DNA of 64,000 bases from assembly GCF_018219455.1 (NCBI RefSeq), contig NZ_CP056122.1:1240001-1304000 (forward strand), read 5' to 3'. Below the pieces are notes generated by a model. The model had not been told where the DNA came from and searched no databases. It saw nothing but the letters and a program-made list of their open reading frames with translations. Shown piece after piece: positions 40,194-60,753 of the stretch (position 1 is its first letter; each line of letters begins with the position of its first letter). The position numbers and the translations under genes are program-made. This stretch comes from Moritella sp. 5. GTDB taxonomy: Bacteria > Pseudomonadota > Gammaproteobacteria > Enterobacterales > Moritellaceae.

Positions 40194-41564
40194 ATGAGTA
40201 CATCAAATCTAACATCATCCGCCAACGTCCTGACGGATGCAGGGCTGTGGCGGATGCTGTTAAACCATGCTCAGAACGATAATCGTTCAGAATTCAAATC
40301 ACAGTTAAGCAAACTGATCATGCAACTTGATGATGTCATGAGCGAGCAACTTTCTGCTGTAATGCAAGCCACTGATTTCAAAGAATTGGAAGCGCGCTGG
40401 TTAGGACTACATAGCTTAGTTTTGCTGCCTGTTTCGCAACGCCGCGTGCAGGTTAAGTTGTTAGACCTTAGCTGGGACATGGTGTCTGCCGATCTTAATC
40501 AATCTTTCAATGTCACCCGCAGTGCGTTATATCAAAAAATATACGCGAATGAACTCGATACCGCAGGCGGCCACCCATTTGGACTCTTGGTTGTTGACCA
40601 TCTTATTCACTCTGACTTAGACGATGATGCTGATTTTGATGATCTGTACACACTGCAGTTATTAGGTGAATTAGGTGAACGCGCGCTGTGCCCTGTAAGT
40701 CTTGGCGTTGATCCGTATTTCTTTGGTGATGAACCCGCTCGATTAATGCCTGACCATAAGCGTATACAGCGTATTTTAAGCAGTTCAGATTTACAAAGTT
40801 GGCAGTTATTACGTTCTCATAGTGCGAGCCGTTTCTTAAATCTGGTGTTACCAGAATACCATTTAAGAAGCCCTTATCAGCATTACCAAGCCGGGTTTGT
40901 ATTTAACGAACGAGCGCTAACAGAACATGTACTGTGGGGAAATTCCGCCTATTTATTGGCTGCAAACGTGATCCGTGAATTTGACCGTATCAGTTGGTTT
41001 GGTTTTTTACGTGCCTATGATGAAAGCGGGCGTTACGGCGCAATAGTGCAAGTGGGTAATGGCCAGCAAGATCCACTGTTATCACGGATTGATCTGTTTA
41101 GTGAAGATGATGATTTTTGGTCTGCACAAGGGTTTGTTCCTTTATCAAGTGTCTATCTTAGCGGTCAAAAAGGCATTTTCAGTAATCAGTCCGTGTGGAA
41201 GGCAACGACTGAAACTGAAAAAATGAGTGGTATGTTACAGACAAATCTTATGGCCTGTCGTTTTGGTCATTACATTAAAGCGCAGATCCGCGATCAAATC
41301 GGCAGCTTTGATAGCCCGTCTACATGTCAGCGTTCGTTAGAAAAGTGGTTAAACCAATATATTAGTGGCGTTGATTTTGGTGATGAGTCAATCATGGCCC
41401 GTTATCCCCTTAAACGCGCTGATGTTAATTTTACGCAAGACCTGCTTGACCCAACAAAATACAGTTGCCAAATAAACCTACAGCCGCAATATCAATATGA
41501 AATGTTAGACACACACATTGTTCTGCTTACCGACGTGCCCGCAACAAAATTAGGGGACCAATAA
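40194..41564 (+). CDS. Second TssC-like sheath protein (TssC paralogue)
   Basis: A 456-residue paralogue of TssC. It keeps MQLDDVMSEQLSAVMQATDF, WLGLHSLVLLP, LDTAGGHPFGLLVVDH (compare FGTAGGQPYGALLGDY), the ASRFLNLVLPEYHLRSPY counterpart of RYVALTLPKTIARLPY, and LMACRFGHYIKAQIRDQIGS. It is about 37 residues shorter and its N-terminal arm, which in TssC interlocks neighbouring subunits and TssB, is reduced. A specialised sheath end or baseplate-proximal ring component, or a regulator of sheath assembly, are possible roles; none is shown here. Confidence 0.83.
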   Translation: MSTSNLTSSANVLTDAGLWRMLLNHAQNDNRSEFKSQLSKLIMQLDDVMSEQLSAVMQATDFKELEARWLGLHSLVLLPVSQRRVQVKLLDLSWDMVSADLNQSFNVTRSALYQKIYANELDTAGGHPFGLLVVDHLIHSDLDDDADFDDLYTLQLLGELGERALCPVSLGVDPYFFGDEPARLMPDHKRIQRILSSSDLQSWQLLRSHSASRFLNLVLPEYHLRSPYQHYQAGFVFNERALTEHVLWGNSAYLLAANVIREFDRISWFGFLRAYDESGRYGAIVQVGNGQQDPLLSRIDLFSEDDDFWSAQGFVPLSSVYLSGQKGIFSNQSVWKATTETEKMSGMLQTNLMACRFGHYIKAQIRDQIGSFDSPSTCQRSLEKWLNQYISGVDFGDESIMARYPLKRADVNFTQDLLDPTKYSCQINLQPQYQYEMLDTHIVLLTDVPATKLGDQ

Positions 41565-44736: not shown

Positions 44737-47346
44737 ATGATTAACGTTGAATTACAAAAACTAGTGACACGATTAACGCCAACATTAAAGAGCGCACTCG
44801 AACTGGCCGCTGCAGATTGTATGGCTAGAACACATTTTAGTGTCGATGTTGAACACTGGTTTTATCAATTATTAAATGAGTCAAAATCTGGTTGGCAAGG
44901 CGTGTTATCGCAAAGCGGTATTGAGCGTGAACAAATTATTGATTTACTTAACCGTAACTTAAATTGTGTCGCACGTGGTAACGACTGTTCGCCATCGCTT
45001 TCACCTTCGTTGATTGAACTGCTTAAAGATTGCTGGTTATTAGCTTCGCTTAACCACAGTAACGCGTCAATTAATGGTTATCACGTACTGCTCGTACTCA
45101 AGCAGCGTATTGAACAAGGTGGATACAACGGTGAATTGACCACATGGTTGAACACGGTATCGATTGAATCATTAAAGAGCGGTGCCGCGAAGCAAGGCAC
45201 TCAAATAAACGCAGGTGAAGTGCAACATAATGACATGGCTCCGAGTGAGTCTGTAGGCACTGTTGCACTTGATAAATATACGCACAATTTAACTGACGCG
45301 GCACGTAAAGGTAAATTAGACCCAATCTCAGGGCGTAATCCTGAAATCCGTAAATCGATTGATATTCTGTGTCGTCGTCGTCAAAACAGCCCGATCCTTG
45401 TCGGTGATCCAGGTGTGGGTAAAACCGCGATTGTTGAAGGGTTAGCACAGCAAATTGTTGATGGTAATGTGCCACCGTCATTGTTGAATGTGGAATTACG
45501 TACGCTGGACCTGTCTTTATTACAAGCGGGTGCAAGCATCAAAGGTGAATTTGAAAACCGTTTGAAAGATGTGTTAACGGAAGTGAAGCAATCTGAACGC
45601 CCAATTATTGTGTTCATTGATGAAGCGCATACGTTAATTGGCGCAGGTGGTGCTGCAGGACAAAATGATGCGGCCAACTTATTAAAACCAGCGTTAGCAC
45701 GTGGGGAGTTCAGAACGATTGCTGCAACAACGTGGGCTGAGTATAAGCAGTATTTTGAAACGGATGCCGCATTGACTCGTCGTTTTCAGCTTGTTGCTGT
45801 GGGTGAACCGAGTGAAGGCGATGCGATTCAAATGCTACGAGGTGTTGCGGGCTGTTTGCAAAAACACCATAACGTGACGGTATTGGAAGAAGCAATTGAA
45901 GCTGCGGTTCAGTTGTCAGTACGCTTTTTACCAGAACGTCAATTACCTGATAAAGCGATTAGTTTATTAGATACGGCGTGTTCACGTATTGGCTTGAGCC
46001 AGAGCGCATTACCGCAAAAATTAGACGGGTTAGCTGAACAAATCCGTTATGCGCACAATGAGCGCACCTCGTTTGCATATGAAGATGCGATGTATGCGAA
46101 CGGCACTGAAAAGTTGGTGGCTATTGCACAGAAATGTAATCAGCTGGAGTCTGAATACGAGGAGTTAAACTCGCGTTGGAATCTAGAAAAAGAATGTGTG
46201 ACTGAAATTTTAAGATTACAGAATGTTATTGCAGAGCGTTTTCTTGCGGGTAAACAGGTTGCAGATACGCCAATGCAGGCACTGTTAAGTAAAAAAATGA
46301 CGGAACTGCGCAGCATTCAAGGTGAATCACCTTTGGTGATGGCACAGGTTGATAAGCAGACTATTGCTGAAGTGATTGCGTTATGGACTGGGATTCCCGT
46401 TGGTAACATGGTTAAAGATGACGTGAAACGTTTACTTAACCTTGAAGCAGAACTCGGACAGCGTGTTATTGGTCAGCATGCTCCGATTCATGAAATTGCC
46501 AAAGCGATCCGTATGTCTCGCGCTGGATTAACTGACCCACGCAAACCGGTTGGTGTGTTTTTAATGTGTGGCCCAAGCGGTGTGGGTAAAACAGAAACAG
46601 CATTGGCATTAACTGATCTACTTTACGGTGGTGAGAAAAATATCACGACTATCAATATGACTGAATTTAAAGAAGAGCACAAAGTATCAATGCTACTTGG
46701 CTCACCTGCTGGTTATGTTGGTTACGGTAAAGGTGGTGTGTTAACCGAAGCGGTACGTAAAAACCCTTACTCGGTATTGTTACTTGATGAAATGGAAAAA
46801 GCGCATCCAGGCGTTCACGATCTATTTTATCAGATTTTTGATAAGGGGACGATTTCAGACAGTGAAGGTCGTGACATCGACTTTAGAAATACACTTATCA
46901 TCATGACATCTAATGCGGCAGATAGTGCAGTTGTTGATGCCTGCCTGGTCGAACGTCCAGATGTATCGTCTTTGACTCAAACGATCTCGCCTGTTTTACA
47001 GCAGTATTTTAAACCTGCCTTCATTGGTCGTACGACCGTGGTGCCATATTTCCCTCTCAATGATACTGAAATGGCTGAAATTGCGCGTCTTTCTTTACGC
47101 CGAATTGAGAAACGAGTAAGTGGCTATTATAACGCTGAGTTCAGTTATGACAGTGACTTGGTGGATTATTTAGTAAGCCAAAATAACTCGCCAGAAACAG
47201 GTGCGAGAGCCATTGAACAAATCATTAATCGTCGATTAGTACCAGATCTAGCGACGCAATGTATCACCAGAATGAGTGAAGGACAAAGCATCACCTGTAT
47301 CAATATCAGTGTTGTAGATGGTGCAGTGGCAATAGCCATTGAATAA
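44737..47346 (+). CDS. clpV: T6SS sheath-recycling AAA+ ATPase ClpV (TssH)
   Basis: Hexameric unfoldase that disassembles contracted sheaths. The 869 residues have a Clp N-domain (1-150) and two AAA+ modules: Walker A GDPGVGKT (223-230) with Walker B IIVFIDEAH, and Walker A GPSGVGKT (612-619) with Walker B SVLLLDEMEKAHPGV. A ClpB-type middle segment contains LESEYEELNSRWNLEKECV. LTDAARKGKLDPISGRNPEI is the normal N-domain-to-AAA junction. It is the last core gene before the four-gene ATP-grasp/transporter module. Confidence 0.96.
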   Translation: MINVELQKLVTRLTPTLKSALELAAADCMARTHFSVDVEHWFYQLLNESKSGWQGVLSQSGIEREQIIDLLNRNLNCVARGNDCSPSLSPSLIELLKDCWLLASLNHSNASINGYHVLLVLKQRIEQGGYNGELTTWLNTVSIESLKSGAAKQGTQINAGEVQHNDMAPSESVGTVALDKYTHNLTDAARKGKLDPISGRNPEIRKSIDILCRRRQNSPILVGDPGVGKTAIVEGLAQQIVDGNVPPSLLNVELRTLDLSLLQAGASIKGEFENRLKDVLTEVKQSERPIIVFIDEAHTLIGAGGAAGQNDAANLLKPALARGEFRTIAATTWAEYKQYFETDAALTRRFQLVAVGEPSEGDAIQMLRGVAGCLQKHHNVTVLEEAIEAAVQLSVRFLPERQLPDKAISLLDTACSRIGLSQSALPQKLDGLAEQIRYAHNERTSFAYEDAMYANGTEKLVAIAQKCNQLESEYEELNSRWNLEKECVTEILRLQNVIAERFLAGKQVADTPMQALLSKKMTELRSIQGESPLVMAQVDKQTIAEVIALWTGIPVGNMVKDDVKRLLNLEAELGQRVIGQHAPIHEIAKAIRMSRAGLTDPRKPVGVFLMCGPSGVGKTETALALTDLLYGGEKNITTINMTEFKEEHKVSMLLGSPAGYVGYGKGGVLTEAVRKNPYSVLLLDEMEKAHPGVHDLFYQIFDKGTISDSEGRDIDFRNTLIIMTSNAADSAVVDACLVERPDVSSLTQTISPVLQQYFKPAFIGRTTVVPYFPLNDTEMAEIARLSLRRIEKRVSGYYNAEFSYDSDLVDYLVSQNNSPETGARAIEQIINRRLVPDLATQCITRMSEGQSITCINISVVDGAVAIAIE

Positions 47347-47407: not shown

Positions 47408-48562
47408 GTGGAAAAAAGCACATTCACCATTGAACAAATCGAATGGATCCGACGCTCACTTAAAATTGCCGTTGTGCATGGTGGCGAAAAAACACAGCCG
47501 GATAGCTTTATTTATAAGAACTTAAGTCCGCGTTCAACAAAAACATATCAGCCCGTTGCTTATGATATTGCAGATGCTTTACGTGAGTCTGGATTTCAAC
47601 ATATTGATGTATTACCTGAAAACATGGACTTACCACAACGCTTGAAAGCGCTAAATATTGATCTGGTGATCACCAATAGTGGTGGCCTTCAAGGCTTTGA
47701 TTCGATGTGCCATTTACCGTCAATGTTGGAAATGTTGGGTGTGCCTTATGTTGGTCATGCGCCAATGACGGCTGGCTTACTTGATAACAAACATTTGTTC
47801 AAACATGAAATAAAAGCAGCTGGGATTCCAACTGCGCCCTTTATTACCGTTGGTTTGGGGGAGTGCATTACCGATGCGGTGAATAAGGAGGCGTTAGATC
47901 AAATGGACGCTGATTTCGGTGGTCGATTTATTGTAAAACCTGTTTCTGGCCGTGCCTCGGTACATGTTTATCCGGTGTTTGATCGTGCAGACCTCGCTGG
48001 TAAAGTAAAAATAGTGCAGGCCGCGACGAATAACATCGTCATGATTGAACCTTATCTGTCTGGCCGTGAATTTGTGGTCGCGGTTGCAGGCTCTGTGATA
48101 TTTAAAAACGACAAGTTGAATCAGTTAGCTTCACCTTTTGCCTTTTCGGTAACGGAGCGTGTACTTGCAGGCGATGAACCCATTTTTACGTCGATGGATG
48201 TAAAACCGATTACCAGTGATCGTTTATTAAAAGTAGATGAGCCTGAATTACGCCAGTCATTAATTGATTTGGGTAATAAGATTTATCAGCAATTGGGACT
48301 CGGTACGCTTGTGCGTGTTGATTTACGCATGGACTGCAAGGGGAAATTATATGTCCTTGAAGCGAATCCAAAGCCAGATTTGAAACGTCCTGAAGGCGAT
48401 AAACTCAGTATTGTTTGTCACGATATTCACAATGAAGGCATGAGCTATCAAGACTTGATCCAATCTTTGGTTTTCAATCGTTTGGTGTATTTACAAGCAC
48501 AACGCCCTGAATCGTTAGCGCATTGTTTTAATGACGACTTCTTCAGCTTGAAAAGCGCTTAG
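47408..48562 (+). CDS. ATP-grasp ligase, D-alanine-D-alanine ligase-like, within the T6SS operon
   Basis: A 384-residue cytosolic ATP-grasp enzyme. The N-terminal domain begins LKIAVVHGGEKTQPDSFIYK and contains LPSMLEMLGVPYVGHAPMTA and LLDNKHLFKHEIKAAGIPTA, the Ddl-type hinge region. The ATP-grasp fold follows with RFIVKPVSGRASVHVYPVFD, IVMIEPYLSGREFVVAV and the metal-binding RVDLRMDCKGKLYVLEANPK (Asp and Glu-x-Asn). It should join a carboxylate to an amine using ATP. The N-terminal residues differ from housekeeping Ddl, so a dipeptide or modified amino acid other than D-Ala-D-Ala is possible. It heads a four-gene module and is 8 bases from the next gene. Confidence 0.82.
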   Translation: MEKSTFTIEQIEWIRRSLKIAVVHGGEKTQPDSFIYKNLSPRSTKTYQPVAYDIADALRESGFQHIDVLPENMDLPQRLKALNIDLVITNSGGLQGFDSMCHLPSMLEMLGVPYVGHAPMTAGLLDNKHLFKHEIKAAGIPTAPFITVGLGECITDAVNKEALDQMDADFGGRFIVKPVSGRASVHVYPVFDRADLAGKVKIVQAATNNIVMIEPYLSGREFVVAVAGSVIFKNDKLNQLASPFAFSVTERVLAGDEPIFTSMDVKPITSDRLLKVDEPELRQSLIDLGNKIYQQLGLGTLVRVDLRMDCKGKLYVLEANPKPDLKRPEGDKLSIVCHDIHNEGMSYQDLIQSLVFNRLVYLQAQRPESLAHCFNDDFFSLKSA

Positions 48563-48570
48563 GAGCGACA

Positions 48571-50793
48571 GTGAGAACCGTTAACGATAATCTTCGGCTT
48601 ACGTTTGGTGTAGCAGTAGTGACAATGTCATTATTGCTTATACTGGTTGTAGGTTATGCACAAGCGCTAAAAAGTCATCGCGAATTATCAACTGACACCA
48701 TTTTAGCGCAAACTCAAGCGGCTAAATTAGGTATCGAACAGATACTCAACTCGGGTGTGCCGTTACCTGAAATCGCAGGGCTAAATCTGGTATTACAGCC
48801 GATTGTAAACTCGAATTCATCGGTTACTGGGTTAGCGTTATTCGCTGGTCACGATGAACTGTATAATGCGGGAGAAACCATCCTCGATGATAACTACATT
48901 ACGATCCCACTCAACAATAAATTCACGCAGGTGGGCAATTTAAAAATTGCATTTAGTCCTGAAAAAGTAGAAGAAGTCGTGACCAATGTTTTTCAACCTA
49001 TGGTGTGGTTGATTGCATTTTTACTGGTGTTATTTATTGTTTCAGTGCTTCGAAGCCAGCGTCGGAAAGTGTATTTAACGAGTTTTATCGTGGTGTTTTT
49101 TAGTATGGCAATCAGTGTCGTGCTACTTGTTGGCAGCTTATATCATGATGGTTTACGCAATAAGGCCGTATCGTTAGCCGATATTGTGAGTCACCGTTTA
49201 GCCCCTGTGTTGGAATATAATATTGACCAGAGCATGGTGACGGGGATTGATAGGATGTTGGATAACTTCCGCAAAGCTAATCCTGAAGTGGCTACTATTG
49301 CAGTGTATAAAAATACCGAGTTAGTTGCGGATTCTCAATACAACCAAAGCATTATGCTACCGATGCTGGGGCGTACAGGGTGGTTAGATTATAGTTTAGC
49401 GACCTCTAAATTTGCAGAGGTGCACCTTACTTATCAATCAAGCGTGGTACTGGGGCAGTTAACCAAAATATTAAAAAATTTCGCAATCTTATTTTTTGCT
49501 TGTGGCTTGGTCTGTTTTGCCTTTATCCGTTTGCTTGGTGGCGACGCAAATCAATCTTCATCAGAACAAGTGCTTGAACGTTTAAAGCCGTTGTTTTTAG
49601 GTGCTGTGCTGATGGAGTCTTTAATGGCACCAATCATGCCGCAGTTCTTAACCTCATTGGCAGAATCGTCAGGGCTTGATGCAAGCACTTCTGCTATTTT
49701 CTTCACACTCTACTTTTTAGGTTTTGCCTTAACCTTACTACCTGCCGCACGTTTAATTGAAACTTATGATATTCGCACTGTGCTTATATGTGGCGTGCTT
49801 TTGTCGACGTTAGGCGGTGGCATCCTTAGTGTCAGTGCTGAAGGTAGTATTGTGAGTGTATTGATTGCGCGTGTTGTGTCGGGTGTGGGCCAAGCCTTCG
49901 TATTCATTTCGGTACAAGGTTATATTTTACGCTTCAGTGATAAGAAAAATAAAACCCAAGCCGCAGGTATTATCGTATTTTGTTTTAATGCTGGATTTAT
50001 TGCCGGCGCTGCGATTGGCGCACTCTTAGCTAACTACTTTGGCGACCGTGCTATCTTTATGATCGCGACCGCCATTGGCTGTGTGATGACGTTATTTAGC
50101 CTTGTATTACCGAGCATGAAAGCGTCTACGAAAGCCTCGGGATCGTTGTTAAATAATATCTCGATGATGATGCGAGATTCTTGGCGATTAATGAAAATCC
50201 CCGCGTTTATTCGAACCATGTTATTGGTGGGCATTCCGACTAAAGCGGCGTTAACTGGTATCGTTTCTTTTGCGGTGCCGTTAATGCTTGCTGAGCGTGG
50301 TATCAGTAAGGAAAGCATCGGCCAAGTGTTGATGACTTATGCTGCTATGGTGTTGTTGGTGAGCCATAAAGCTGGGCCTTGGGTCGATAAGTTAGGCAGT
50401 AGTAAGCTTGCATTGAGTGTTGGTAACCTGATTGCCGGAGTCGCGCTTATTATTCTAGGTGCGGCATTTGAAATGGAAGACAGTTTGATGATTGTTGTTT
50501 TTACCACTATTTCAATGATGTGCATGGGGTTATCACACGGTCTTATTAATGCGCCTGTGGTGACGCATGTTGTAGACGCCATGGCTGATAGGCAAGAGGT
50601 GGACTCTGTCATTGCTGCGACGTATCGTTTCCTTGAACGACTAGGTCATGTGTCTGGGCCGCTTATTGTCGGGCCATTATTATACCGGTTCGGCGTGGAT
50701 TATACCCTGATAATACTGGCAATTTTCTTTGTTGTTATAGCTGTGCTGTTTTCTCTATTCGATAGACAAACACCTAAGGTGGTAAACATATGA
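48571..50793 (+). CDS. MFS transporter fused to two N-terminal periplasmic sensor modules
   Basis: A 740-residue inner-membrane protein starting at GTG 48571 after TAGGAG. Residues about 11-32 and 143-162 are helices bracketing a first periplasmic domain (33-140). Helices about 171-191 and 303-322 bracket a second (192-300). The two domains share a weak pattern (helical start, then VTGLALFAGHDELYNAG versus VATIAVYKNTELVADS), like PAS/PDC sensor folds. From about 335 an MFS domain of twelve helices begins, with LGFALTLLPAARLIETYDIR and the motif A-like GPWVDKLGSSKLALSVG. No kinase or cyclase domain is present. It looks like a transporter gated by periplasmic signals or by the adjacent binding proteins. 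Confidence 0.8.
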   Translation: MRTVNDNLRLTFGVAVVTMSLLLILVVGYAQALKSHRELSTDTILAQTQAAKLGIEQILNSGVPLPEIAGLNLVLQPIVNSNSSVTGLALFAGHDELYNAGETILDDNYITIPLNNKFTQVGNLKIAFSPEKVEEVVTNVFQPMVWLIAFLLVLFIVSVLRSQRRKVYLTSFIVVFFSMAISVVLLVGSLYHDGLRNKAVSLADIVSHRLAPVLEYNIDQSMVTGIDRMLDNFRKANPEVATIAVYKNTELVADSQYNQSIMLPMLGRTGWLDYSLATSKFAEVHLTYQSSVVLGQLTKILKNFAILFFACGLVCFAFIRLLGGDANQSSSEQVLERLKPLFLGAVLMESLMAPIMPQFLTSLAESSGLDASTSAIFFTLYFLGFALTLLPAARLIETYDIRTVLICGVLLSTLGGGILSVSAEGSIVSVLIARVVSGVGQAFVFISVQGYILRFSDKKNKTQAAGIIVFCFNAGFIAGAAIGALLANYFGDRAIFMIATAIGCVMTLFSLVLPSMKASTKASGSLLNNISMMMRDSWRLMKIPAFIRTMLLVGIPTKAALTGIVSFAVPLMLAERGISKESIGQVLMTYAAMVLLVSHKAGPWVDKLGSSKLALSVGNLIAGVALIILGAAFEMEDSLMIVVFTTISMMCMGLSHGLINAPVVTHVVDAMADRQEVDSVIAATYRFLERLGHVSGPLIVGPLLYRFGVDYTLIILAIFFVVIAVLFSLFDRQTPKVVNI

Positions 50794-51926
50794 TCCGAGT
50801 TTTATTCATCTGGGTAGCATGCTGTTTACCAACATATGCTGCAACGGAATGGCCGACATGGTTAGGCGAAGAACTACAACCTAAAACAGCTAGTCATTGG
50901 CGTGCGGAGTCTGCCGCTGAAGGGGTGTCGTTTGTGCCTGCGCGTTCATTGTCTAAAATATTGGTGATCGTGTCACGCAAGGCATCGTCTTATGATGTGG
51001 CATTAAAAACGCTGTTAAATGTATACAGTACCCAATTACCTCAAGTGCAGTGGGTCGTTAAACGCTTACCTGTAGATAATGCCATGTTAGTGAATTTGCT
51101 TCATCGTGCAGAGAATGAGGTTGACTTGGTGTATACCTTAGGCTCTAAAGCGACCATGTCTGTGCACAAGGTATATCAAGGTGGTTTATTGCCGGTTGTT
51201 TCTGTTAATTCAAAAGATCCGGTGTTATTAGGTCTCACAGATAACTATGCTGGTACGGGGAACAATTTTGCATTCACGTCATTGAACCTACTAACAGATG
51301 TAACTCTTCGCATTATGCAACGCTTTAATCCACAGCTAAAGCAAATCGGTATTTTGTATTCACGTACCAATCAGAGTGCATATCTCACGCAATTTTTACC
51401 AATGAAAAAATTTGCTGAAAAAGTGGGATTAACTGTTGTGCCAATTGTGGTTGATGAATCGAAATCGGCTATGAGTTTGAAGTTAGTGATGGACACTGCG
51501 ATGACGAGGCTTAAACAAACGGATCCAGAACTGAATAATACCTTGCTTTGGTTAACGGGTAGCTCGTCGTTACTCGCGCGTGTGGATGAAATTAATCAAT
51601 TTTCACAGCAGCTTGCGTTGATTTCTGCGGTTCCTGATGTGGTGAATGGGACGAAAGCCAGTGCATTAATGTCGTTTGGCGTTAGCTTTGTGAATAATGC
51701 GACGCAAGCGGCGTTGTATGGCATCCAAATTTTAAAAAAAGAGGCCGTTGTGGGAGACCTTCCTGTCGGTGTTATCTCGCCACCTGACATTTCAATTAGC
51801 TTTAGGCAAGCGGCCCGTATTAACCAAGCAATCCCATTTGAATTAATGGAAATGGCCAGCGATGTGTATGGCATCGAAGGCAGAATGATCCGCTCTAACG
51901 GAATGTCTGTGGAGGACGGTCAATGA
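50790..51926 (+). CDS. Periplasmic substrate-binding protein, ABC_sub_bind (TrpX-like) family
   Basis: A 378-residue exported protein: signal peptide MIRVLFIWVACCLPTYAA, then a type I periplasmic-binding fold with VDLVYTLGSKATMSVHKVYQ, LPVVSVNSKDPV, LKQIGILYSRTNQSAYL and LMSFGVSFVNNATQAALYGI. The family often binds aromatic amino acids or related small molecules. No ABC permease or ATPase is beside it. Instead it overlaps the sensor-MFS gene by 4 bases, so it probably presents a ligand to that protein. Confidence 0.8.
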   Translation: MIRVLFIWVACCLPTYAATEWPTWLGEELQPKTASHWRAESAAEGVSFVPARSLSKILVIVSRKASSYDVALKTLLNVYSTQLPQVQWVVKRLPVDNAMLVNLLHRAENEVDLVYTLGSKATMSVHKVYQGGLLPVVSVNSKDPVLLGLTDNYAGTGNNFAFTSLNLLTDVTLRIMQRFNPQLKQIGILYSRTNQSAYLTQFLPMKKFAEKVGLTVVPIVVDESKSAMSLKLVMDTAMTRLKQTDPELNNTLLWLTGSSSLLARVDEINQFSQQLALISAVPDVVNGTKASALMSFGVSFVNNATQAALYGIQILKKEAVVGDLPVGVISPPDISISFRQAARINQAIPFELMEMASDVYGIEGRMIRSNGMSVEDGQ

Positions 51927-52651
51927 ACGTAATACATAACGTAAACAGAATAATGCCTTTAACACTGGTGTTAAGTTTGTTTCTCGGAGGGGCATTTATG
52001 GCAAAAAGTGAAATCCGTCCGGAACGATTACTGTTAGCGACACAAGTGTGGAGTCCTTATCAATACCAAGAAAACGGTGAAATGAAAGGGCTTGGGATAG
52101 TGAAGTTGAAATGTATTTTAAAGGTAATGAAACAGCCTTATCAAATAACGATGACAGACTGGGACCGTTCTCAGATTCTAACGGAAGTAGGGGAACTACA
52201 TGGCCTTTTCCTCGCGTCTAAGAATGATACCCGCGATAAATATGCAGAGTATTCCGCGCCTTTAATGAACCAAACATGGAGTTGGTTTAGTTTGTCTGAC
52301 GCGATTGATACCAAGAGTCCCCAGTTTAAAAAAGAAGTACCAGTGACCGCATTATTTGGTTCGAACAAGTGGTTATGGTTACAAAAACAAGGTTACCGAG
52401 TCGAGAAAAAACCGCGTAGTGCAACCGTGCTTATTGAATTACTACTGTCAGGCGAAGTAGGTGCAGTATTGGCAAATGATGTGGTGATGGAAAATGCGAT
52501 TAATCAATTGGGTATTAGCCATCGAGCAATAACCAAAACAATGGTAAATGAGAAACCACTAGGTGTGTACTTCTCGAAGAAGTTCACGGGGAAATATCCG
52601 TTATTTATCAATGAATTCAATCAAGCCATTGTGGCGTGCGAGGGTCAGTAA
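51923..52651 (+). CDS. Periplasmic SBP_bac_3-type solute-binding protein
   Basis: A 242-residue exported protein of the amino-acid-binding (family 3) class. A signal segment (LTLVLSLFLGGAFMAKS) is followed by LLLATQVWSPYQYQENGEMK and GLGIVKLKCILKVM, the usual start of this fold, then DWDRSQILTEVGELHGLFLA, DTRDKYAEYSAPLM and VLIELLLSGEVGAVLANDVV. It overlaps the preceding gene by 4 bases and ends 1 base before tagH. Like its neighbour it lacks ABC partners. Binding of an amino acid or peptide-like ligand is likely from the family. Confidence 0.8.
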   Translation: MNVIHNVNRIMPLTLVLSLFLGGAFMAKSEIRPERLLLATQVWSPYQYQENGEMKGLGIVKLKCILKVMKQPYQITMTDWDRSQILTEVGELHGLFLASKNDTRDKYAEYSAPLMNQTWSWFSLSDAIDTKSPQFKKEVPVTALFGSNKWLWLQKQGYRVEKKPRSATVLIELLLSGEVGAVLANDVVMENAINQLGISHRAITKTMVNEKPLGVYFSKKFTGKYPLFINEFNQAIVACEGQ

Positions 52652-52652
52652 T

Positions 52653-53675
52653 ATGCCGTTATCATTACGAATTATCAGCTCTCCTGATGGAGAACCCATT
52701 CCAGAATGGACAATCAACTTTCCCGATGAAGGAGGAAGCATTGGTCGTGCTTATGGTATGACGATGCAATTATCGGATGCCTCTAGGGAAATTTCGGGTA
52801 CGCATGCGTTAATTAACCGCGGAAGCCGTGGTTATCAAATTATGGACGTGAGCACGAATGGTGTGTTTTTAAATGGCGCGAGTAAACCGTTAGGTTCAAA
52901 TAATCAATCGACGTTGAACGATGGCGATGTGGTTAATGTGGGTAAATATCGCCTAATGGTGTCTTGTTTCACTCCCGATAAAGCGGTTGTAAAGGCGGCG
53001 GAACAAACTGGAATGCAAGGTACTGATAAGTCGTCACTACTGAGTGCCTGGGATGACGATCCGTTTGGTGATGCTTTATCTACTGCCCGCGTTAACGCTC
53101 ATTCAGTTAATGGTAAAGCAGATTCAGTATCAGAGTCGTCAGATGACCTTGAAGTACCAGAATGGGTGTTAACTGATCCAAAAGAAGAGTTGGACGGTAT
53201 ATTTGCAGACCCATTTATTGCTAATGAACCTGTAAAAAAACGGGGGCAAGGCATGCCTCAAAATACCTGGTCGGATGATGATAGTTTTTCTGATGACCCT
53301 TTTGGTGATGAGATGCTTAATACCGCGTCTGTAGTGATTGATGAAGGTCAACAGTTTGCTGATACGAGTTCACGATCTAATTATTCTGCGTTGGAGTCAC
53401 AGCAACTGATGTTGTTACAACTTAAACAGCATGACCTGATGGTTCAATCAGCAGAAATGGCGTTAGAACGATTACTGTCAGATATTTCACCGACGGAGCT
53501 CGAAAGTTTCTTTGATGACTTTGCGCCGCGACGTTTTTGGCAAAAGAAAGTGGACTATTGGACAGTGTACAAACGCTACTTTACTCGTCAAAAAGAGAAC
53601 AAAGAATGGCAGATGAAATTTAAAGCGTATTTTAGTGAAAGTTTACGCATTAAGCAGTCAATGGGAGACAAGTAA
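52653..53675 (+). CDS. tagH: T6SS-associated FHA-domain protein TagH (Fha)
   Basis: Phosphothreonine-binding scaffold of the threonine phosphorylation pathway that switches T6SS firing. ATG 52653 gives 340 residues; an upstream in-frame start at 52563 lies inside the preceding gene and is rejected. The FHA domain (about 25-100) shows GGSIGRAYGMTMQLSD, SREISGTHALI and DVSTNGVFLNG. A disordered acidic middle repeats the motif DPFGD (DDDPFGDAL, SDDPFGDEM, with ADPFIAN similar). The C-terminal domain (about 235-335) has LLSDISPTELESFFDDFAPR typical of TagH. A kinase partner lies at the end of the operon. Confidence 0.9.
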   Translation: MPLSLRIISSPDGEPIPEWTINFPDEGGSIGRAYGMTMQLSDASREISGTHALINRGSRGYQIMDVSTNGVFLNGASKPLGSNNQSTLNDGDVVNVGKYRLMVSCFTPDKAVVKAAEQTGMQGTDKSSLLSAWDDDPFGDALSTARVNAHSVNGKADSVSESSDDLEVPEWVLTDPKEELDGIFADPFIANEPVKKRGQGMPQNTWSDDDSFSDDPFGDEMLNTASVVIDEGQQFADTSSRSNYSALESQQLMLLQLKQHDLMVQSAEMALERLLSDISPTELESFFDDFAPRRFWQKKVDYWTVYKRYFTRQKENKEWQMKFKAYFSESLRIKQSMGDK

Positions 53676-54152: not shown

Positions 54153-55475
54153 ATGGATAAGAAAAAAGTAGTTTGGTCTGAGGGGATGTTTTTAAGCCCG
54201 CAACATTTTCAACAACAAGAACGTTATTTTGAAGAGTTTACCAAACAATATTGCAGCCTGATGAATCCAATGCGCCACGGTTTGGCTGAGTTAGAACTTG
54301 ATTATTCATTAGTTAATATTGGCAAAGTTGGGATCAAGCGTGCAAAAGGTATTTTTCCTGATGGCACTCCTTTTGATATTCGTAATGGATTAGCGCTTGA
54401 TATTCCTGCTGGTGCCATGGATAAGTTAGTGTATTTAGCGATGCCAATTTATCGATCTGGTGTGATGAATGTAGGTTGTAAAGATGACGTTCACCGCCGT
54501 TACCACCGCACTGATTACGACGTGTTTGATACGACCCGAGACAATACCGAAGCGTTGCAATTGGAGTTAGCGGAATTAAATATCGTACTCAAGCTTGAAG
54601 GCGAAGAGTTACAGGATTATACCCAGATCCCGATTGCGCATATCACTGAACATAAGTCAGATGGCGGGATTGAGCTAAACCGTGCGTTTATCCCAATGTC
54701 ACTTTATTTCACGGTGTCTGAATACTTAAAAGATAACGTGAATGATCTATATGCACAGATGAAATACCGCGCGAGCACCATCTCACAACGCTTACAGGTA
54801 GATTCTGCTAACAAAAGCTATCAAGCGTTAATTCGTGATTATTTATGGCTACAGGCTTTAGGTCGTTGGTTACCAAATATTAAGTATTGGCTTGATAATG
54901 GGACCACATCACCGCAAGAAATTTACCAAGAATGTATGTCAATGGCAGGTGAAATGCAGGGCTTAGACACCAAGATGCCAAAAGAATATGACAGCTGGAA
55001 CAATGGCCGTTTGTATAGCCTCTTCTCGATCTTGTTTTCTGATATTCGCGTGCTATTACGTGAAGTTCAACTCGATAGTGTGACTACGTTAGTTTGGGAT
55101 AAGAGCTTGTTTGATAAGCGTCGTTTATTACGTACGTTAGTGCAGGACTCAAGCCTTTATAATGCGGGGCGATTTATTTTGGTAGTATCGTCACCGTTAG
55201 GTGCAGTGCAGTTAAGTAAACAATTCCCACTCGCGGTTAAGCTAGCAGGTAACAGCATGGTTGCTGATCTCGTGCGTAATGCGTTATCTGGTGTGCCAGT
55301 ACGCGCGTTACCTATTGCGCCATCGGAATTAAAATCACGTACTGATGTGGCCTATTTCGAGCTAGATACGCAATCTGATTTGTGGCAGCAGCTCGTGAAG
55401 AAAGACGAACCGATAGCATTACATGTCGATAATCGCATTGGCGATGTTGATATTGAATTGTACGTAATTCGGTAG
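54153..55475 (+). CDS. tssK: T6SS baseplate-membrane connector TssK
   Basis: Trimeric adaptor linking the baseplate to TssL and TssM. The 440 residues begin KVVWSEGMFLSPQHFQQQER, an unmistakable TssK start, and contain PMRHGLAELELDYSLVNIGK, LYSLFSILFSDIRVLLREVQ and AGNSMVADLVRNALSGVPVR. Length matches the family (about 445). Confidence 0.96.
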   Translation: MDKKKVVWSEGMFLSPQHFQQQERYFEEFTKQYCSLMNPMRHGLAELELDYSLVNIGKVGIKRAKGIFPDGTPFDIRNGLALDIPAGAMDKLVYLAMPIYRSGVMNVGCKDDVHRRYHRTDYDVFDTTRDNTEALQLELAELNIVLKLEGEELQDYTQIPIAHITEHKSDGGIELNRAFIPMSLYFTVSEYLKDNVNDLYAQMKYRASTISQRLQVDSANKSYQALIRDYLWLQALGRWLPNIKYWLDNGTTSPQEIYQECMSMAGEMQGLDTKMPKEYDSWNNGRLYSLFSILFSDIRVLLREVQLDSVTTLVWDKSLFDKRRLLRTLVQDSSLYNAGRFILVVSSPLGAVQLSKQFPLAVKLAGNSMVADLVRNALSGVPVRALPIAPSELKSRTDVAYFELDTQSDLWQQLVKKDEPIALHVDNRIGDVDIELYVIR

Positions 55476-60087: not shown

Positions 60088-60753
60088 ATGATGACGGACG
60101 CGATAAACGGTCGACTTGCTTCTCGTTTTACAGTGATCAAATTACTGTCATCGACGACATGGTTGGTTCGAGATCGCGAATCTGCTTCAGCATCAGAGTA
60201 TATGGTGCTGAAGCGAGCAGATCCCATTGCAATGAAACGAGAGTTGCTCTGTTTAGCTGACTGCCATTCGTATTACATTCGTCCTGTAAGGGAGTATTTA
60301 AAGTCGGAAAATTTATTATTGATGCCATTCATTGAAGGGGAGTCATTACTCTCTTTTAGTGTGCATCAAACAAGTGAATTTCTGCTACTTGTACCACAGA
60401 TAGTGCGTGCGATTATGGCGATGCATGCGCAAGGTTGGGTGCATGGCGATATTAAGCCATCAAATGTTATTTATAATGTGAATAAAGGTGAAATATCGTT
60501 AATTGATTGTGGCTCTGCATTACAGTCTGGTACGACATTATCGAACTTGTCATCATGGCAAGTGACCCCTGGTTTTTGTTCCGCAGATCGTTATGAACAG
60601 TCGCACATCGTGGTGCCTCAGGATGATTGGTATGCTTTTTATCAGTGGTTATTGCAGTTGTATAATTCGGATTTAACCTTGCCAGAACAGCTGTTATTAA
60701 CACGCTGGCTTAATTGGCTTATCAAAATGAAAGATAAGCCGAATGCCGATTAG
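60088..60753 (+). CDS. Small Ser/Thr protein kinase of the T6SS cluster (PpkA/Stk-like)
   Basis: A 221-residue kinase-domain protein directly after tssM with no gap. Visible are the lysine strand YMVLKRADPIAMKREL, hinge region LLLMPFIEGESLLSF, catalytic loop VHGDIKPSNVIYN (HGD in place of HRD) and the metal motif IDCGSA (DCG in place of DFG). The Gly-rich loop is weak and there is no membrane or sensor extension as in PpkA. It should phosphorylate TagH or another T6SS part. No PppA-type phosphatase is found in the window, so the off-switch lies elsewhere or is absent. Confidence 0.82.
   Translation: MMTDAINGRLASRFTVIKLLSSTTWLVRDRESASASEYMVLKRADPIAMKRELLCLADCHSYYIRPVREYLKSENLLLMPFIEGESLLSFSVHQTSEFLLLVPQIVRAIMAMHAQGWVHGDIKPSNVIYNVNKGEISLIDCGSALQSGTTLSNLSSWQVTPGFCSADRYEQSHIVVPQDDWYAFYQWLLQLYNSDLTLPEQLLLTRWLNWLIKMKDKPNAD

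What the first reader, a model, noticed from the sequence alone, without database searches (positions are those of the whole stretch)
47408..52651. Four-gene ATP-grasp / sensor-MFS / dual binding-protein module embedded in the T6SS operon
Between clpV and tagH sits a compact unit with 4-base overlaps or gaps of 8 bases or fewer: a Ddl-like ATP-grasp ligase, an MFS transporter fused to two periplasmic sensor-type domains, a TrpX-like ABC_sub_bind protein and an SBP_bac_3 protein. None is a T6SS core part, and neither binding protein has an ABC permease or ATPase. The simplest reading is a chemical-signal device. The ligase makes a dipeptide-like molecule, the MFS protein exports or imports it, and the binding proteins report the external level to the periplasmic domains, with the output being T6SS firing through TagH and the kinase. 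An alternative is peptidoglycan-fragment sensing, since Ddl-type and amino-acid-binding families both handle wall building blocks. I do not know whether this module has been described.
Basis: partly seen in the sequence, partly recalled or inferred. Interest (0 to 1): 0.85.

Follow-up and report, generated by a model that had tools for sequence, protein, structure and literature searches.

The report
Nutrient-receptor protein built into T6SS
One lineage of bacterial injection machine (type VI secretion) in marine bacteria carries a built-in periplasmic binding protein of the amino-acid-receptor kind, often beside an optional sensor-transporter cassette, which suggests that a small molecule helps decide when the machine is used.

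Summary
The four genes are real, intact and where stated, in a Moritella T6SS operon. They are not one device but two layers. (1) The last gene, a divergent family-3 solute-binding protein (SBP3), belongs to one T6SS lineage: it lies directly before tagH in all 72 loci of an SBP3 scan (fused to it in one draft), and all 24 SBP3-bearing T6SSs sampled form one TssK group, while 40 T6SS loci outside it lack SBP3. It is as conserved as TssK. (2) The sensor-MFS and ABC_sub_bind genes form a strictly coupled pair (both in 60 loci, neither in 12, never one alone) that is often absent where SBP3 stays, also exists outside T6SS, and probably entered this slot twice. The ATP-grasp enzyme accompanies one version only and has lost the Ddl catalytic Ser and Tyr. 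Two named T6SSs of this group are reported to act on animal cells. [quoted passage not shown] Best reading: a ligand-responsive periplasmic checkpoint on T6SS use, with an exchangeable sensor-transporter. Anatomy is well supported; ligand, partner and signalling step are inferred.

The parts
51923..52651 (+). SBP3: divergent family-3 solute-binding protein, signal peptide, two invariant Cys (C64, C239), amino-acid-carboxylate Arg (R104); fixed part of this T6SS lineage
50790..51926 (+). ABC_sub_bind (PF04392, TrpX-like) periplasmic binding protein; coupled to the sensor-MFS
48571..50793 (+). MFS transporter (DHA1/VMAT/NorA-like fold) with two tandem N-terminal periplasmic domains of Cache-like layout (inference)
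47408..48562 (+). Ddl-related ATP-grasp enzyme with a changed acceptor site; in the 72 loci only with type-A cassettes, or alone with SBP3 in V. proteolyticus T6SS3
52653..53675 (+). tagH (FHA protein), directly downstream of SBP3
44737..47346 (+). clpV/tssH, upstream border of the slot
   Evidence: annotated homologue in the same order
60088..60753 (+). small Ser/Thr-kinase-like protein without a predicted membrane segment, end of the operon
54153..55475 (+). tssK, used for the T6SS tree

Best explanation
A ligand-responsive accessory of one T6SS lineage. SBP3 is a secreted periplasmic receptor of the amino-acid-binding (SBP_bac_3) kind that has become a standing part of the machine. It probably reports ligand occupancy to the periplasmic part of the membrane complex (TssM/TssJ), and so licenses assembly together with TagH and, where present, the kinase. 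The upstream cassette is an optional tuner: the ABC_sub_bind protein docks on the two periplasmic domains of the sensor-MFS, which moves the ligand or a relative (probably outward, as its fold relatives are H+-coupled exporters) or reads its level; in type A an ATP-grasp enzyme modifies or makes that compound. Shown: anatomy, conservation, clade restriction, strict MFS/ABC_sub_bind coupling, slots with SBP3 but no cassette. Inferred: ligand, contact partners, direction of transport, effect on firing.
For: SBP3 directly before tagH in 72 of 72 loci of an SBP3-only scan, in L092 as one ORF with both; one group of T6SS copies, support 85/97; all 24 SBP3-bearing T6SSs sampled in one TssK group (SH-aLRT 99), SBP3 absent from 40 T6SS loci outside it. 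Identity between type A and B: SBP3 38%, TssK 40%, ClpV 56%, TagH/TssJ/TssL/TssM/TssG 24-29%. Carboxylate-binding Arg in 69 of 73 (53 of 55). MFS and ABC_sub_bind together in 60, neither in 12, one alone in 0 of 72, with matching main split in their trees. Sensor-MFS model with two extra periplasmic alpha/beta domains. Outside T6SS a related pair lies beside a hybrid histidine kinase and a GGDEF/EAL gene (L048; read by eye). In Moritella SBP3 is present in 6 of 11 genomes, the same 6 that have this T6SS type. Precedents for periplasmic inputs: TagQRST, RtkS, TslA (passages).
Against: No ligand, interaction or phenotype is known. The kinase is not found in L096, L100 and L133 (nor in L072 and the cut locus L095), has no predicted membrane segment, varies more than any other T6SS gene compared (21% identity between A and B), and a candidate ATP-Lys column is not conserved (13 of 68); SBP3 cannot act on it directly as RtkS does on PpkA. 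V. proteolyticus T6SS3 is active in the laboratory without the MFS pair, and V. coralliilyticus T6SS2, which has the pair, is active in ordinary rich medium. That T6SS2 secretes more in rich medium is not specific, since T6SS1 does too. Four of 73 SBP3s, all SBP3-only loci, have His for the Arg. The MFS pair exists without T6SS (L038, L040, L048, L050-L053, L196).
Confidence: 0.45

Rival explanations
1. SBP3 is a structural or assembly factor (chaperone or clamp for TssM/TssJ, or a guide for local wall opening) that kept a solute-binding fold but no longer senses anything; the upstream cassette is a separate metabolic passenger.
For: SBP3 tracks the T6SS more closely than the cassette does and stays where the cassette is missing; position next to tagH-tssJ; four SBP3-only loci have lost the pocket Arg; precedent TslA, a periplasmic protein that starts assembly through TssM (passage).
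Against: The pocket Arg is kept in 69 of 73; a mere passenger would not be expected to enter the same slot with the same two families from two branches of their trees.
Confidence: 0.25
2. One reading: the ATP-grasp enzyme makes a dipeptide-like signal, the MFS exports it, and the two binding proteins report it back to control firing (self-made chemical signal).
For: Four genes together in 32 of 72 loci; MFS fold closest to exporters VMAT/MdfA/NorA; ATP and Mg residues of the ligase invariant in 34 of 34.
Against: 28 loci have no ligase, 11 have SBP3 alone (2 of these cut or rearranged upstream) and 1 has ligase+SBP3 without an exporter; a biosynthesis-export-sensing circuit would not be expected to work in these. 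Ddl acceptor residues are changed.
Confidence: 0.12
3. Cell-wall-fragment sensing: SBP3 and/or ABC_sub_bind bind peptidoglycan-derived peptides or D-amino acids released when the envelope is breached, licensing T6SS assembly.
For: Family-3 SBP fold and a Ddl-related enzyme; a DapF-like epimerase accompanies a related MFS/ABC_sub_bind set in L048 (the same gene order in L040).
Against: No known wall enzyme in the slot; two of the three Ddl triad residues are lost; closest solved SBP3 relatives by sequence are Gln- and Arg-binding proteins, weakly (best E 1.3e-4).
Confidence: 0.12
4. Ordinary nutrient uptake genes trapped in the operon without a role in secretion.
For: All families are transport- or metabolism-like; the annotated plasmid record names them only so.
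Against: No permease or ATPase in the slot of the window or of the plasmid record; SBP3 is before tagH in 72 of 72 loci, and only fragments of it remain in L039, where this T6SS is gone.
Confidence: 0.06

Closest known systems
TagQRST-PpkA-Fha input of Pseudomonas H1-T6SS
   Same: Periplasmic/inner-membrane sensing genes in a T6SS cluster with an FHA protein and a kinase (passages)
   Different: Protein families differ (solute-binding protein, MFS and ABC_sub_bind here); the kinase here shows no membrane segment
RtkS of Serratia marcescens T6SS
   Same: Periplasmic protein encoded just downstream of fha and pppA, for which its authors suggest a small-molecule ligand as one possibility (passages)
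   Different: RtkS is described as unrelated to known small-molecule-binding proteins and acts on PpkA's periplasmic domain; SBP3 has a solute-binding fold and the kinase here has no such domain
V. proteolyticus T6SS2/T6SS3 and V. coralliilyticus T6SS2 clusters (Ray 2017, Cohen 2022, Mass 2024)
   Same: The same slot in named, studied systems: L104, L087 and L102
   Different: [quoted passage not shown] the words transporter and MFS do not occur in the three main texts; figures were not available
SBP-dependent secondary transporters (TRAP, TTT; recalled)
   Same: Periplasmic binding protein paired with a secondary transporter
   Different: The partner here is an MFS protein with its own periplasmic domains
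Binding-protein co-receptors such as LuxP-LuxQ and TorT-TorS (recalled)
   Same: Type-I binding protein beside a membrane protein with periplasmic sensor domains
   Different: The output domain is an MFS transporter, not a kinase

Membership tests
SBP_bac_3 (family-3 solute-binding proteins) | Profile match | tested here: inconclusive
   PF00497 at E<=0.01 in 47 of 55 members, best 1.1e-7; the window protein 0.0029, under the curated cut-off; solved relatives at E 1.3e-4
SBP_bac_3 (family-3 solute-binding proteins) | Arg for the ligand carboxylate in the T/S-x-x-R motif (motif recalled) | tested here: met
   R104 in 69 of 73, His in 4; position 101 is N, T or S
SBP_bac_3 (family-3 solute-binding proteins) | Works with an ABC permease | tested here: not met
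   None in the slot of the window or of the annotated plasmid cluster. In 70 loci the slot holds the module genes, 19 ORFs of three small families (two of the three scanned, no transporter match) and 2 unscanned ORFs. A permease elsewhere in the genome was not searched for
D-Ala-D-Ala ligase | ATP/Mg residues (Lys97, Lys144, Asp257, Glu270, Asn272 of DdlB; roles recalled) | tested here: met
   K128, K177, D305, E318, N320 in 34 of 34
D-Ala-D-Ala ligase | Catalytic triad Glu15-Ser150-Tyr216 (recalled) | tested here: not met
   Ser150 aligns with Ala183 in 34 of 34; residue 216 with V/L/I/A252; Glu15 lies outside the alignment to 1iow and was not tested; the Ddl models shown are far under cut-off
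MFS, DHA1-type H+ antiporters | MFS fold and TM4 (motif B) Arg | tested here: met
   Fold matches to VMAT/MdfA/NorA; R434 invariant in 54 rows; the motif name is recalled
MFS, DHA1-type H+ antiporters | No extra periplasmic domains | tested here: not met
   Two tandem N-terminal periplasmic domains
TrpX / ABC_sub_bind | Equivalog cut-off of TrpX | tested here: not met
   42 bits against 390; PF04392 cut-off met
TPP pathway (PpkA-PppA-Fha-TagQRST) | FHA protein and kinase in the cluster | tested here: met
   tagH in 72 of 72 (fused to SBP3 in L092), kinase in 67 of 72 loci
TPP pathway (PpkA-PppA-Fha-TagQRST) | Transmembrane kinase with periplasmic domain | tested here: not met
   No predicted membrane segment in the window kinase

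The most novel reading that the evidence does not exclude
The sensor-MFS plus ABC_sub_bind pair is a kind of transporter or receptor not seen before: an MFS protein whose activity depends on a periplasmic binding protein docking on its own periplasmic domains (SBP-dependent secondary transport outside TRAP and TTT). It was coupled at least twice to a T6SS lineage whose SBP3 is a built-in ligand receptor, so that secretion is gated by one extracellular compound.
Probability: 0.2. Interest if true: 0.87.

Novelty: new variant of a known kind. Interest (0 to 1): 0.62.

Why it matters
What tells T6SSs that act on animal cells when to fire is largely unknown. A receptor-type protein fixed in a lineage that includes such systems gives a direct, testable handle: purify SBP3, find its ligand, remove the gene and watch secretion. 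It also supplies a marker for this lineage, found on chromosomes and on Vibrio plasmids. Independently, an MFS/binding-protein pair with periplasmic sensor domains, kept together inside and outside T6SS, would widen what is known of how binding proteins are used.

Tried and rejected
Ordinary ABC system: rejected for the slot, no permease or ATPase there. The genome's second PF04392 protein (L001) also has no ORF of 100 residues or more in the 1.5 kb held downstream of it; wider partners were not looked for. Pseudogene or assembly artefact: rejected, intact in many genomes. One indivisible four-gene unit: rejected. T6SS-only cassette: rejected by L038 and L196. One common T6SS origin of the cassette: rejected for MFS (AU p 0.0005 with ordinary MFS rows; 1.7e-6 without them and without L049) and for ABC_sub_bind (p 0.0015). 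The groups were named after seeing scores or trees, and long branches are present. A group of A, B and the two free-standing loci together is not rejected (p 0.17), so one entry into T6SS with later escape stays possible. Sensor-domain family: no solved relative by sequence at E<=10; HAMP in 7 of 54 and dCache_1 in 1 of 54 at E<=0.5; Cache-like is read from the secondary structure of the model only. A structure of SBP3 was never obtained, machine busy.

Counts and drops: the scan uses two degenerate peptide patterns, so it finds fairly close relatives only. The SBP3 tree used 26 of the 72 loci, the window, L160, L161, L174 and 25 of 28 non-T6SS loci (L166-L168 left out as fragments or remote). 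The TssK tree used 20 of the 72 loci, the window, L160, L161, L174 and 40 of 42 other loci (L188 and L203 dropped, no TssK ORF picked up). Its T6SSs without SBP3 are a choice, not all of its TssK genes. 72 loci are not 72 genomes: L078-L080 are near-copies from one assembly, and several genomes give two loci. SBP3-bearing loci were found with SBP3, so '24 of 24' leans on that; the less biased sample is the TssK search: 16 TssK genes have an SBP3 match within about 3 kb, and one more was found by reading (G201). The MFS and ABC_sub_bind trees used 12 loci each of types A and B plus those named in the text.
Full report
What is there. The window lies in a single-contig genome of 4,991,674 bases. 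The nearest named loci are Moritella (SBP3 97% identical). Four intact genes lie between clpV (ends 47346) and tagH (probable start 52653): a Ddl-related ATP-grasp enzyme, a 740-residue MFS protein, an ABC_sub_bind protein and a 242-residue solute-binding protein here called SBP3. The junctions are tight.

SBP3 belongs to one T6SS lineage. A pattern scan of the species-genome collection with an SBP3 alignment (made from T6SS copies; no other T6SS gene was used) gave 72 loci. In all 72 SBP3 lies directly upstream of tagH in a T6SS cluster; in L092 the two are one ORF in a draft with several split T6SS genes, and L095 begins inside SBP3. They come from Vibrio (and one 'Vibrionales' assembly), Photobacterium, Moritella, Psychromonas, Enterovibrio, Grimontia, Pseudoalteromonas, Thalassomonas, Motilimonas and Shewanella. 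In 295 genomes of the order, 45 have an SBP3 match at E<=1e-10 and 127 have TssK. All 15 genomes whose best SBP3 match is at least 236 bits, and one at 83 bits (G104), have it within about 3 kb of a TssK gene. A further one (G201) was missed by the search and found by reading. The other genomes' matches are weaker (up to 192 bits); 22 such loci of this set and 6 from a class-wide search (5 of 369 genomes match, one of them the window's own) were read, and no T6SS gene was recognised in the 8-18 kb held. The T6SS copies form one group in a tree, support 85/97, which is short of the tool's star. A TssK tree puts all 24 SBP3-bearing T6SSs sampled in one group (SH-aLRT 99), and none of 40 other T6SS loci has SBP3 in the stretch read, up to 20 kb. 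In the window's genus 6 of 11 genomes have SBP3, exactly those with this T6SS type. Between the two main versions (type A, type B) SBP3 is 38% identical, like TssK (40%), below ClpV (56%) and above TagH, TssJ, TssL, TssM and TssG (24-29%) and the kinase (21%). It has a signal peptide (direct reading), two cysteines invariant in 55 rows and the Arg that in this fold holds an amino-acid carboxylate (69 of 73; His in 4 SBP3-only loci; the role is recalled).

The upstream cassette. In the 72 loci, 32 have all four genes (type A), 28 have MFS+ABC_sub_bind+SBP3 without ligase (type B), 1 has ligase+SBP3 (V. proteolyticus L087) and 11 have SBP3 alone, two of which (L095, L109) are cut or rearranged upstream. 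MFS and ABC_sub_bind never occur singly. Besides these genes, the slots of 70 loci hold 19 ORFs of three small families and 2 unidentified ORFs. SBP3-only loci fall inside both groups (L094 with L074; L097 with L106; L117/L129 with L098), so the simplest reading is repeated loss of the cassette with SBP3 kept. In 7 of the 10 genomes with complete slots lacking the pair, no MFS relative is found at E<=1e-12; in two the match is the other T6SS of that genome, and in one a free-standing locus (places compared). In G141 the pair lies at the other end of the same T6SS cluster (L047 and L161). Free-standing ligase/MFS/ABC_sub_bind loci exist (L038, L196). Related MFS/ABC_sub_bind pairs stand in a run with a DapF-like gene, a hybrid kinase and a GGDEF/EAL gene (L048, same order in L040; this MFS lacks the large periplasmic domains) or without these (L050-L053); of 9 such non-T6SS loci read, 8 have the ABC_sub_bind gene, L049 does not. 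In careful trees type A groups with the free-standing loci (100/100 for both proteins) and type B with the others; one T6SS-only group is rejected (AU p 1.7e-6 for MFS, 0.0015 for ABC_sub_bind). So the cassette entered the slot at least twice, or entered once and also left it; the quick tree with ordinary MFS rows does not reject A, B and the free-standing loci as one group (p 0.17). Caveats: long branches, and groups named after first results.

The proteins. The MFS model (mean pLDDT 81, pTM 0.76) shows two tandem N-terminal units, each a long helix, one or two short helices, four strands and a helix back into the membrane, before a normal MFS body that matches VMAT, MdfA, NorA and SotB (also by sequence). 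This is the layout of single Cache domains (inference). A HAMP match appears in 7 of 54 members at E<=0.5, best 2.7e-4; the answer does not say which. The ATP-grasp enzyme keeps the ATP/Mg residues in 34 of 34, but the Ddl catalytic Ser is Ala and residue 216 is V/L/I/A; its substrate is open. The kinase keeps the HxD/N/D residues (66-68 of 68) but not a candidate ATP-Lys column (13 of 68), and has no predicted membrane segment.

Known systems in this clade. V. proteolyticus T6SS3 (locus tags vpr01s_01) is L087 and T6SS2 (vpr01s_08) is L104, by contig number and by the two and three genes that the paper counts in the slot (inference). Ray 2017 (PMC5666596; [quoted passage not shown] the passages seen say no more about them. 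Cohen 2022 (PMC9545535; passages) shows that T6SS3 secretes and induces macrophage death, reports no activating condition for T6SS2, and lists T6SS3-like clusters in four further species, V. crassostreae and V. anguillarum among them. V. coralliilyticus T6SS2 (Mass 2024, PMC11371242; passages) is L102: both published Hcp2 antigen peptides are encoded in that cluster. It is described as anti-eukaryotic, with higher expression and secretion in rich than in poor medium, as for T6SS1. A V. crassostreae plasmid carries the four genes with the T6SS; a plasmid T6SS of that species is titled cytotoxic for host immune cells in a cited reference (the paper was not read, and identity of the plasmids was not tested). 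Thus two named T6SSs of this clade act on animal cells, and for V. proteolyticus neither T6SS2 nor T6SS3 was needed to kill E. coli. In V. proteolyticus the active system lacks the MFS pair and the silent one has it, but V. coralliilyticus T6SS2 has the pair and is active in rich medium, so no rule follows.

How it may work. A receptor-type periplasmic protein fixed beside tagH is best read as an input to T6SS assembly. Precedents read in passages: TagQRST and RtkS feeding PpkA, TslA acting through TssM. The kinase here cannot be reached directly from the periplasm, so TssM/TssJ is the likelier contact (inference). The cassette would set or read the ligand level. A structural role of SBP3 is the main rival.

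Literature. Ten paper searches showed no description of the module in their listings. Boyer 2009 (PMC2660368) has none of six search terms in its main text, and a 2023 regulation review has no 'MFS', 'substrate-binding' or 'solute-binding'. Figures and supplements were not available, and most subscription papers are not held.

Noticed in passing
40194-41564: A second TssC-like sheath gene (PF05943 + PF18945) follows tssC in this T6SS; the same is annotated in the V. crassostreae plasmid cluster.
   Followed up: partly
L048:153-12093 and L040: DapF-like epimerase, MFS, a 530-residue protein without Pfam match (22% identical to one beside the pair in L050), two ABC_sub_bind genes, a Cache-type hybrid histidine kinase and a GGDEF/EAL gene in one run: another home of an MFS/ABC_sub_bind pair. 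Kinase and GGDEF/EAL read from sequence by eye.
   Followed up: partly
L034:11338-12315, L035:11536-12492, L036:7847-9004 and relatives: Three families of small ORFs of unknown type inserted between clpV and the ligase (19 ORFs), or after the kinase (L081, L086, L087); by position in V. proteolyticus possibly the published T6SS3 effectors. The window has none between clpV and the ligase.
   Followed up: no
L039:7255-9353: Decayed copy with no T6SS gene recognised nearby: ABC_sub_bind intact, MFS and SBP3 only fragments.
   Followed up: partly
L092:9974-11722: SBP3 and TagH form one ORF in an Enterovibrio coralii draft that also has split tssF, tssK and tssM; real fusion or draft error not decided.
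   Followed up: partly
L143-L159, L162-L165, L169-L172: SBP3 paralogues outside T6SS; no shared neighbour was recognised, as neighbours were compared only with the T6SS and cassette query set.
   Followed up: partly
NZ_AP025479.1 (L199), L085: T6SS clusters with the four genes on Vibrio plasmids, one predicted conjugative.
   Followed up: partly
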